From: Antedon mediterranea
Lineage: Eukaryota > Echinodermata > Crinoidea > Comatulida > Antedonidae
Length of the DNA stretch: 64,000 bases
Reading direction: 5' to 3'
Assembly (NCBI RefSeq): GCF_964355755.1
Contig: NC_092676.1
Span: forward strand, 18,954,288 to 19,018,287
The notes under the pieces are model-generated. The model ran no database searches. It saw only the letters and a list, made by a program, of their open reading frames with translations, and was not told the DNA's origin. Numbering within the stretch: the first letter of the stretch is position 1; each line of letters begins with the position of its first letter. Of the stretch, positions 30,113 through 33,100 are shown piece after piece. The position numbers and the translations under genes were made by a program.

Positions 30113-33100
30113 TTAACTGGTTACATCCATCATTGCAGCGCTTGCTGAAGGTTCAAGAATGTCAAGCTCACCACTTGGGTCTTCATTTGATGGCTCTGTA
30201 ATTACTGCTCCCTGTTCAATGATAAAAGACTACTATTTTAGTTTTGTACTCTTTACAACAGTCAACCGAATAGAAAGCCAATAGTCACATTTACACCACA
30301 CTAAAAATGAACAATACATAATCAATTGTCTTCCAGATTAAAGTACTTCTGCAACATATTGTATATAGTTTTCTCTAAAGCGTGGTTCCCACTAGCGACG
30401 CAACGCAAGGACGTAACGCAACGCAAGTGAATTGACCAATCACAAGCAAAGTTATAGACAGTTAGCAATCACAAGCGAATAAGCCATCGCTTGTGATTGG
30501 TCAATTCACTTGCGTTGCGCTACGTCCTTGCGTTGCTAGTGGGAACCACGCTTAAATAGTACAGTATAATCAAGGCAATCTAACATCAGGATGCTGAGCT
30601 CCAGAGATCAAAGGCTGTGTCTGTGACATAATCAGTTCCACACCCCATAACAGACACTGCGGAGAATATGTACATAGTGCAGTACTGTTGGTATTTGTAG
30701 CAGCCAGACATAAAATCAAAGGACTTTTACGAGTTCCTATCTTGGCAAGGCATGCTCAGTGTCCTGTTGAAACCATCCTGTAAAATAAATAAAACATACC
30801 TCATTCTCTGCAATTTGGGCTGCTGTTTCTACTTCAGCGGCTGCTTGTAATACAGACTCTTCAGCTGCAGCTTTCATGGCTGCAATGGCAACTTCAGTGT
30901 CAGGAGTTACTAATGTCAGTGCACCCTCATCGTCATCATCAAGTTCTGAATGCAAAAAGTAAAAACGCTTTATCATTAACATATATTAAAAAATATAACA
31001 CACCTGATTGTATTCTTGAAATTTGATTATTTAATTATGCATCGTCATTTAGAATTATCTCTACCAAACAGGAAGTGATATCTAATAGTGATAATTGACA
31101 CGTTCTAATGCATTCTCACCATCCAGCTAATAAAAATTCATTATTTTTATCTAATCTACTCCTTAATATACCTACCAACATCCGTAGCAGCACCTGGTAC
31201 TGATGACGGTAAGGCCTGTTGTAGGACGAATGTTCCAGCAGAAGTTTGAAGTATAGTGCCCTCTGTGGCTTGAATCGTTGATCCATCTGCACGTTGTATG
31301 ATAATGTTTGTTGGCCCACCCTGGGCAAGTGTGATCTGTCCTAGCGTCTGGTCGTTCTTTGACTGCCCTGGTTGCATGGAACGTGTTGTAATTGTGTATT
31401 CTATTTGAGGACGTTTGTCTGACCCCTGACCATCGTCAGATACTGAAATATGATTAAGTTTGCAATTTAATATTTTTAATCAAATGCACTGGATGCTCAG
31501 TGCTGTATTTTCACATAAAAATATTGTCCACTATCATAGGCACTTCATGTGTATCACATGTGATAGCTGTATCATGGAAGGTAGGTTAAGGGGGCTATCA
31601 GGTTCATGCAGGTACTTATGATGTCTGTATCATGGAAGGTTAGGTTAAATGTTTAGGGCTATGATACAGGTATCACATGTGATGCTGTATCACAGAATTC
31701 ACATACGATACTGGACAAACTAAACATTTATCATTAATGATCAAACACACTTACTTGCTTCAAATATTTGTGGATCAACGTCAAGACTTCTCTCTATCTC
31801 TCCATGCACTGTTCTTTTGTGCATAGCTAATGTTGATGTCTGTCGGTAGTTTTTACCACACAAGTTACAAGTGTATGGTTTGGAATGTGTATGAACAACG
31901 TGATGCTTGTACAAACTTGAATATTCTGTGAAACGCTTTCCACAGCCAGCTACTGTGCATACGTATGGTTTTTCGCCTGTGAAAAATTGAAACACATTAA
32001 GGAGCTTTTGATGTGTGACTGTATGACCTATGACCTACGAATATTGTTTCACTAGTGGTTGTCTGAAACATGTCCCTGCAACCAGGAAACATAAGGTATT
32101 TCCAGTAAAGCTCTGTCTATATTATCAAACTTTATGTGACAAAAATGTGTGATGTGCTAAAATATGGTATTGATATGCCCAAAGATGGTAGTGACATATC
32201 ATCATATCCATTTATGGGCACATCACATAAAGTTTGATAGTGTAGACAGAACTTAAGTCTTCACATTGTATAGCATCTGTATTTGTTTACACCCTAAAAA
32301 ATATTGCTACTAACCTGTGTGAATGCGCATGTGATTCTTGTAGTTGGTGGCGCTTGAGAATGCCCGATTACATGTTTTCTCATTACAAACGTATGGCCGT
32401 TCGCCAGTGTGAACACGGATATGTACTTTCCTGATATTTGATGTTGTAAAGGCCTTATTGCACCCTTCAAACGGACACTTAAAGGGTCGTTCACCTAATA
32501 AAGTAAAATGTTAACATTTATTCATAAAATTTAATAATTTATTCATAAATTTAAGTGTAAGTGGTGAGTATGGCTATTTTACTATTTACTTTTTTTTATT
32601 ACTTTTTCGGCTCAAGAGTATCTTTTTTTTCAATACCATGTCGCATTTATCCACTGAAAATGATCTATAAATTAATATGTACTTGTATTTATACAATATA
32701 TATATATACTGACAGACGGGATCTAATAAGATCAAAACAGTACTGTCTGCAGATTGGATATTACACTCCTCTACTTTCTGCTATATAAATATATAGTATG
32801 TTGTTTTGTAGAGCACTCTTCAGTTCGAAACGGTGCATTTGTTGTGAATACTATTAGCATTTTGCAAAGCACGCTCGTTGAGCTTGTGCACTCTTTGTGT
32901 TCATAATCAGTGTACCATGTCCTGCATACCTGGCTCAGTCTATATATTGTGCCAGTTCTGCGGTACATTTCATTTCGAAACCTCAGCTGCACTGACGAGA
33001 TCTAATAAGATCGAAAAAGTACTGTCTGCAGATTGGATATATACAATATATATATACCGTACTGACGCGGGTATAAGCCCACCCCCCTTGAACATGAAAT

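What the first reader, a model, noticed from the sequence alone, without database searches (positions are those of the whole stretch)
32690..33060. Hammerhead-ribozyme (retrozyme-like) element in a ZNF143 intron
Seen: two type I hammerhead motifs in direct orientation whose predicted cleavage sites (after 32747 and 33026) are 279 nt apart. The downstream copy has every invariant core base (CTGACGA, GAAA, U16.1, C17) and 5-bp stem I and 4-bp stem II. The upstream copy has a perfect stem III but a decayed core. AT-rich flanks repeat on both sides. Known: metazoan retrozymes and Penelope-like elements carry tandem type I hammerheads with tiny, palindromic stem III, and their monomers circulate as small RNAs. 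Inference: this is a dimeric insertion whose 279-nt unit could be excised and circularised in relatives with two good ribozymes.
Basis: partly seen in the sequence, partly recalled or inferred. Interest (0 to 1): 0.85.

Follow-up and report, generated by a model that had tools for sequence, protein, structure and literature searches.

The report
Hammerhead retrozyme copy in animal intron
A small non-coding mobile element carrying a self-cleaving RNA sits in an animal gene's intron, one of a family whose copies end just past the cleavage site, often in TA repeats, which points to how such elements are inserted and to the mobile element that may insert them.

Summary
Two type I hammerheads lie in direct orientation, cleavage sites after 32747 and 33026, 279 nt apart. 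The downstream core is intact; the upstream core has three changes. The strict motif occurs once in the window and once in 300 shuffled windows. The 48-nt ribozyme has 167 genomic places at up to 3 mismatches, 56 exact, reversed control 0. It is a metazoan non-LTR retrozyme, a known kind.

New here is the integration signature: scattered 5' ends, 3' ends about 10-14 nt past the cleavage site, over half running into dense TA tracts. I infer target-primed reverse transcription starting inside the RNA. A Penelope-like element of this genome has its own minimal hammerhead, ends in the same TTGGAT before TA tracts, and its 3' sequence lies within 100 nt of 19 of 75 retrozyme copies. It is the best candidate partner, not proven; a tRNA-like SINE shares the TA target.

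The element is antisense to the ZNF143-like host gene. Cleavage, circular RNA and the nature of the template were not shown.

The parts
32690..32706 (.). left copy of candidate target-site duplication TATACAATATATATATA
   Evidence: (D3)
32702..32758 (+). upstream type I hammerhead with decayed core; the 5'-truncated partial unit (aligned part: unit 244-279 at 32712-32747) ends at the predicted cleavage after 32747
   Evidence: (58.1 bits)
32748..33026 (+). full 279-nt retrozyme unit; 6 of 279 positions differ from the family majority; GC 0.394
32980..33037 (+). downstream type I hammerhead, core intact, stem III weakened by A.G mismatch; predicted cleavage after 33026
   Evidence: 85.5 bits
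33027..33039 (+). 3' tail past the cleavage site (unit 1-13, TGCAGATTGGATA), the commonest 3' end of the family
33040..33056 (.). right copy of candidate target-site duplication
33057..33684 (+). later insertion of an unrelated TIR element (CCGTACTG...CAGTACGG, TA duplication) in the TA tract behind the retrozyme
33685..33728 (-). inverted 44-nt copy of TA tract plus retrozyme tail, with the same private A in stem III
   Evidence: (I1)
32491..33771 (-). intron of the ZNF143-like gene that holds the element, antisense (limits approximate, splice sites read by eye)
   Evidence: zinc-finger frames 32313-32510 and 33770-33973 on the - strand; gene name recalled, from no database call

Best explanation
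A copy of a non-autonomous, non-LTR hammerhead retrozyme. Shown in sequence: a dispersed family of about 279-nt units with a type I hammerhead; scattered 5' ends; 3' ends about 10-14 nt beyond the cleavage site, over half of them next to dense TA tracts; arrays built as a truncated unit plus one or more further units plus the short tail. Inferred: an endonuclease and reverse transcriptase that cuts AT tracts nicks a TA site, the freed ...TAT end primes at the AUAU just 3' of the cleavage site, and cDNA runs 5'-ward through the ribozyme. Because the start point lies 3' of the cleavage site, a cleaved linear monomer could give only about 10-14 nt, so every productive template must be uncleaved or have been re-closed, for example as a circle. 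The likely enzyme is the GIY-YIG Penelope-like element of this genome that ends in the same TTGGAT before TA tracts and carries its own minimal hammerhead.
For: 167 places of the 48-nt ribozyme at up to 3 mismatches (56 exact), reversed control 0. First sample, 36 of 41 rows: the unit's first 14 nt kept in 19, 9-13 nt in 10, fewer in 7; at least 14 of 19 TA/AT steps in the 3' flank in 19 of 36 against 6 of 1765 background windows; 5' flank ending TATA or ATAT in 15 of 36 against 2%. Second sample, all 40 exact places not in the first: all end at unit 10-16, 32 of them at 14; TA-rich in 25 of 40 against 15 of 710. Penelope-like partner: minimal hammerhead at 1499 places, control 0; 3' terminal 23-mer at 2687 places, control 0, both at up to 2 mismatches; an upstream frame of the same protein in 4 of 8 longer copies, in L124 with an RT-like stretch (19.9 bits, cut-off 29.6) and GIY-YIG (22.7 bits, cut-off 22.6); part of its last 161 nt within 100 nt of 19 of 75 retrozymes, against 7 hits in 70.6 kb of farther flank. 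A purified Anolis Penelope-like protein prefers AT-rich DNA and starts reverse transcription inside its RNA, downstream of its hammerhead site (PMC11167929).
Against: A target-site duplication passed a strict test in 2 of 71 copies against 0.7 by shuffling (maximum 4), not significant; pure-TA sites cannot be judged, and the test missed the window's own 17 nt because the 5' limit was set inside it. The ribozyme core is not significantly better conserved than the body (15 of 630 against 247 of 8176), and the alignment shows no covariation. Units of one array share no more private variants than shuffled pairs (4 against 3.84 over 15 pairs), and L028 holds a longer unit and two short ones in one array, which a single circle would not give. 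In the Anolis work hammerhead mutants did not change insertion, unprocessed RNA was the main substrate, and the start site was not homologous to the cut DNA. A tRNA-like SINE also ends in TA tracts and lies within 100 nt of 16 of 75 retrozymes, with 10 hits farther off, so the TA enzyme could be another one. Two other Penelope-like families here end differently (L057, L059).
Confidence: 0.8

Rival explanations
1. Same retrozyme, but mobilised by an unidentified LINE that targets TA tracts and also moves the tRNA-like SINE; the Penelope-like element only shares the target.
For: SINE and retrozyme both end in TA tracts, and the SINE lies within 100 nt of 16 of 75 copies; fixed 3' and ragged 5' ends are also LINE habits (general knowledge).
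Against: The Penelope-like element shares TTGGAT at its terminus and the string TGCACTGA at stem I and core, and internal start of reverse transcription is shown for a Penelope-like protein. I did not search for TA-targeting LINEs.
Confidence: 0.25
2. Satellite or tandem-repeat DNA spread by DNA recombination, with the hammerhead a by-product.
For: Tandem units in part of the copies; unit-length variants within arrays (L028, L007). Four of the 40 first loci (L015, L016, L018, L020) are segmental copies of one another.
Against: Hits lie on all 11 large contigs, mostly one unit or less, with a common 3' end and different flanks.
Confidence: 0.05
3. A chance hammerhead-like string in AT-rich DNA.
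For: No Rfam hammerhead match at gathering threshold.
Against: 1 strict hit in 300 shuffled windows; 167 related places.
Confidence: 0.01

Closest known systems
Metazoan non-LTR retrozymes of coral, mussel and axolotl (PMC7229834, parts 1-4 of 6 read)
   Same: type I hammerhead, units of 150-450 bp in short tandems, low GC, no LTR, weak stem III in many
   Different: here the 3' junction, TA target and 5' truncation are described and a candidate partner is pointed out; no RNA data here; palindromic stem III ACAGTACTGT
Penelope-like elements with minimal hammerheads (PMC11167929, parts 1-2 of 4 read)
   Same: AT-rich target; reverse transcription starts inside the RNA, downstream of the hammerhead site
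   Different: the retrozyme has no RT or endonuclease frame, a longer stem III, and its start point is about 10-14 nt from the cleavage site
Rfam RF02275 Hammerhead_HH9
   Same: best Rfam hammerhead match, 27.2 bits
   Different: below the gathering score of 52
Plant LTR retrozymes (PMC4918200, search listing only; features from PMC7229834)
   Same: hammerhead non-autonomous retroelement
   Different: plants: type III ribozymes, LTRs, about 700 nt; here type I, no LTR seen

Membership tests
metazoan non-LTR retrozyme | type I hammerhead with intact core | tested here: met
   in 14 distinct of 17 aligned copies 97% of cells pair, without covariation
metazoan non-LTR retrozyme | unit about 150-450 bp, tandem copies | tested here: met
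   279-nt unit; multi-unit arrays in part of the loci
metazoan non-LTR retrozyme | low GC | tested here: met
   unit GC 0.394
metazoan non-LTR retrozyme | target-site duplication longer than 4 bp when present | tested here: inconclusive
   17 nt in the window; 2 of 71 in the strict test, not significant
metazoan non-LTR retrozyme | self-cleavage and circular RNA in tissue | not testable with these tools
   no RNA data
Penelope-like element | RT plus GIY-YIG protein frame | tested here: not met
   longest stop-free frame in the 279-nt unit 76 aa; unit far too short; frames found in separate elements
plant LTR retrozyme | type III hammerhead in LTRs | tested here: not met
   type I layout; no LTR seen around the copies read

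The most novel reading that the evidence does not exclude
The retrozyme is a parasite of a Penelope-like element: it carries the partner's terminal TTGGAT and is reverse transcribed from one fixed internal point about 12 nt downstream of its own ribozyme site. Only uncleaved or re-closed (circular) RNA can then be inserted, so cleavage and re-ligation gate integration. A tRNA-like SINE uses the same TA-targeting machinery.
Probability: 0.4. Interest if true: 0.7.

Novelty: new member of a known kind. Interest (0 to 1): 0.5.

Why it matters
[quoted passage not shown] Penelope-like elements named as a strong candidate). A shared 3' junction, a TA target and a candidate partner with the same terminus make that question directly testable.

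Tried and rejected
Rfam RF00163 over the genome gave no match, but 73 of 33051 candidates were scored and no control genome rang, so it says nothing. COX1 was not found and paper searches did not name the species; the host stays unidentified (11 large contigs). L046, taken up as a Penelope-like element, reads as a host gene (SLX1-like, recalled) with a piece of the partner. The minimal-hammerhead repeat was first taken for a SINE of about 190 nt; longer copies showed upstream RT-like and GIY-YIG frames. Within-array similarity did not separate a circle from a linear multimer. A pattern CTGATGA...CGAAACGTC gave 5 places against 1 in control; 3 of the 5 were read and none had a clear Penelope-like context. 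L048 (a Penelope-like RT and GIY-YIG frame) was read, but its 3' end was not determined.

Rows dropped: W, L015, L018, L020, L023 (36 of 41 kept); these and L037 (75 of 81 kept), rates: W, L001, L015, L018, L020, L023, L037, duplication test: W, L015, L018, L020, L022, L023, L028, L034, L037, L086 (71 of 81 kept). In one search two kept rows, L022 and L037, are not true 3' ends (an inner unit end was measured). On rechecking I lowered the novel case from 0.45 to 0.4, because the Anolis paper found unprocessed RNA to be the main substrate.

Full report
Observation. The 50-nt repeat 32712-32761 / 32991-33040 is 92% identical at spacing 279. The downstream ribozyme has all core bases, stem I CTGCA/TGCAG and stem II GATC/GATC; its stem III has an A where the family has C. 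The upstream copy has a perfect palindromic stem III, ACAGTACTGT, three core changes and, being truncated at its 5' side, no proper 5' strand of stem I. A strict motif scan, set up after seeing the site, found one hit in the window and one in 300 order-1 Markov windows. Rfam gives only a sub-threshold HH9 match. A model from 17 family copies, the window's own among them, gives these two sites 85.5 and 58.1 bits and the next match 12.8.

Family. A search with 32690-33062 gave 60 matches, with 40 of 335 candidates scored, on all 11 large contigs C1 to C11 (lengths). The 48-nt ribozyme has 167 places at up to 3 mismatches, 56 of them exact, none for the reversed control. The window unit differs from the family majority at 6 of 279 positions and has GC 0.394. 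L004 holds two exact ribozymes 285 nt apart.

Ends of copies. The first sample is the 40 scored loci (plus the window's own stretch, a duplicate of L001), with 36 of 41 rows kept. Their first aligned unit positions range from 1 to 256. The strict count of unit bases kept past the cleavage site is 14 in 19 rows, 9-13 in 10 and 0-8 in 7. Two rows are not true ends (L022 among the 9-13, L037 among the 0-8). Of the other six low rows, four have a substitution in an otherwise present tail (L002, L008, L012, L028) and two end early (L019, L034). The next 20 nt have at least 14 of 19 TA/AT steps in 19 of 36 rows, against 6 of 1765 background windows. The second sample was all 40 exact ribozyme places not already fetched: all 40 end at unit 10-16, 32 of them at 14, and 25 of 40 have the TA-rich flank, against 15 of 710. 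That sample required the first 10 nt past the site, so earlier ends could not be seen in it. Longer copies are a truncated unit plus one or more further units plus the tail.

Reading. A common 3' end, ragged 5' ends and a TA target are what target-primed reverse transcription from one internal point would give. The start point is 3' of the cleavage site. A cleaved linear monomer would therefore yield only about 10-14 nt, so templates must be uncleaved or re-closed. This is inference; no RNA was examined. Against a circle: units of one array share no more private variants than shuffled pairs (4 against 3.84 over 15 pairs), L028 mixes unit lengths, and in Anolis unprocessed RNA was the main substrate. 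A 17-nt duplication flanks the window's element, but a strict test over 71 copies found 2 (L073, L080) against 0.7 by shuffling, maximum 4. The ribozyme core is not significantly better conserved than the body, so selection on it is not shown.

Partner. Some retrozymes lie next to a repeat with another, minimal hammerhead, found at 1499 places with up to 2 mismatches, control 0. Its 3' terminal 23-mer, TTTTCAGTAATTTGCCTTTGGAT, has 2687 places at up to 2 mismatches, control 0. Of 22 such ribozymes in 20 fetched stretches, 17 matched the terminal pattern, and all 17 go on with TAT, TTTAT or TAAT. Of 8 longer copies, 4 (L120, L121, L124, L125) carry the end of one upstream frame; in L124 there is an RT-like stretch (19.9 bits, Pfam cut-off 29.6) and a GIY-YIG stretch (22.7 bits, cut-off 22.6). 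I read it as a Neptune-type Penelope-like element; that clade name is recalled and comes from no call. It ends in the same TTGGAT as the retrozyme, and part of its last 161 nt lies within 100 nt of 19 of 75 retrozyme copies, against 7 hits in 70.6 kb of flank beyond 100 nt. A purified Anolis Penelope-like protein prefers AT-rich DNA and starts reverse transcription inside its RNA, downstream of its hammerhead site (PMC11167929). Two other Penelope-like families here end differently, as two-copy comparisons show (L057, L059). A tRNA-like SINE also ends in TA tracts and lies within 100 nt of 16 of 75 retrozymes, with 10 hits farther off, so a different TA-targeting enzyme is not excluded.

Setting. 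The element is on the + strand; zinc-finger frames at 32313-32510 and 33770-33973 are on the - strand, and the ZNF143 name rests on recall of the human protein. The ribozyme is therefore antisense to the host gene. A TIR element (33057-33684; 40 scored places of 318 candidates, the window's included) lies in the TA tract behind it, and 33685-33728 is an inverted copy of the tail with the same private A.

Known and new. Metazoan retrozymes are described (PMC7229834, parts 1-4 of 6 read), with priming left open and Penelope-like elements named as a strong candidate. In the held library two papers contain both 'retrozyme' and 'target-primed'; in the 2020 paper the second term occurs once, in that open question, and the other paper was seen only in the search listing. 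PMC7761336 was seen as passages only. I class the window copy as a new member of a known kind, with a new, testable account of integration.

Noticed in passing
window 33057-33684: TIR element (CCGTACTGACGCGGGTATAAGCCC, TA duplication), 40 scored places of 318 candidates at 95% identity or more, the window's included; contains a hairpin with 20-nt perfectly complementary arms at 33068-33087 and 33113-33132.
   Followed up: partly
window 33685-33728: Inverted copy of TA tract and retrozyme tail with one mismatch over the compared stretch; could be snap-back synthesis or priming from both target strands.
   Followed up: partly
L105:53-233 and copies beside retrozymes: tRNA-like SINE of 181 nt whose 3' end TTGCCTAATGTGTTTATATA resembles the Penelope-like 3' end TTGCCTTTGGATTTATATA by eye; a possible SINE driven by a Penelope-like element.
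   Followed up: partly
L028: Short-unit variant of the retrozyme (unit 1-14 followed by 127-279), two copies behind a longer unit.
   Followed up: no
L057, L058: Penelope-like family with an 857-aa frame in L057; 99.9% identical over 2414 nt between the two places, with many places of equal score; probably young.
   Followed up: no
window 51470-51579 and 11744-11786: Fragments of the Penelope-like 3' end (82%, - strand) and of the tRNA-like SINE head (95%, - strand).
   Followed up: no
window 61272-62618, 34892-35678, 29063-29889, 3409-3883: Long, well-kept tandem arrays with units of 27, 45, 95 and 95 bp.
   Followed up: no
window 39961-40032: tRNA gene, 60.4 bits, the only Rfam match of the window at gathering threshold.
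   Followed up: no
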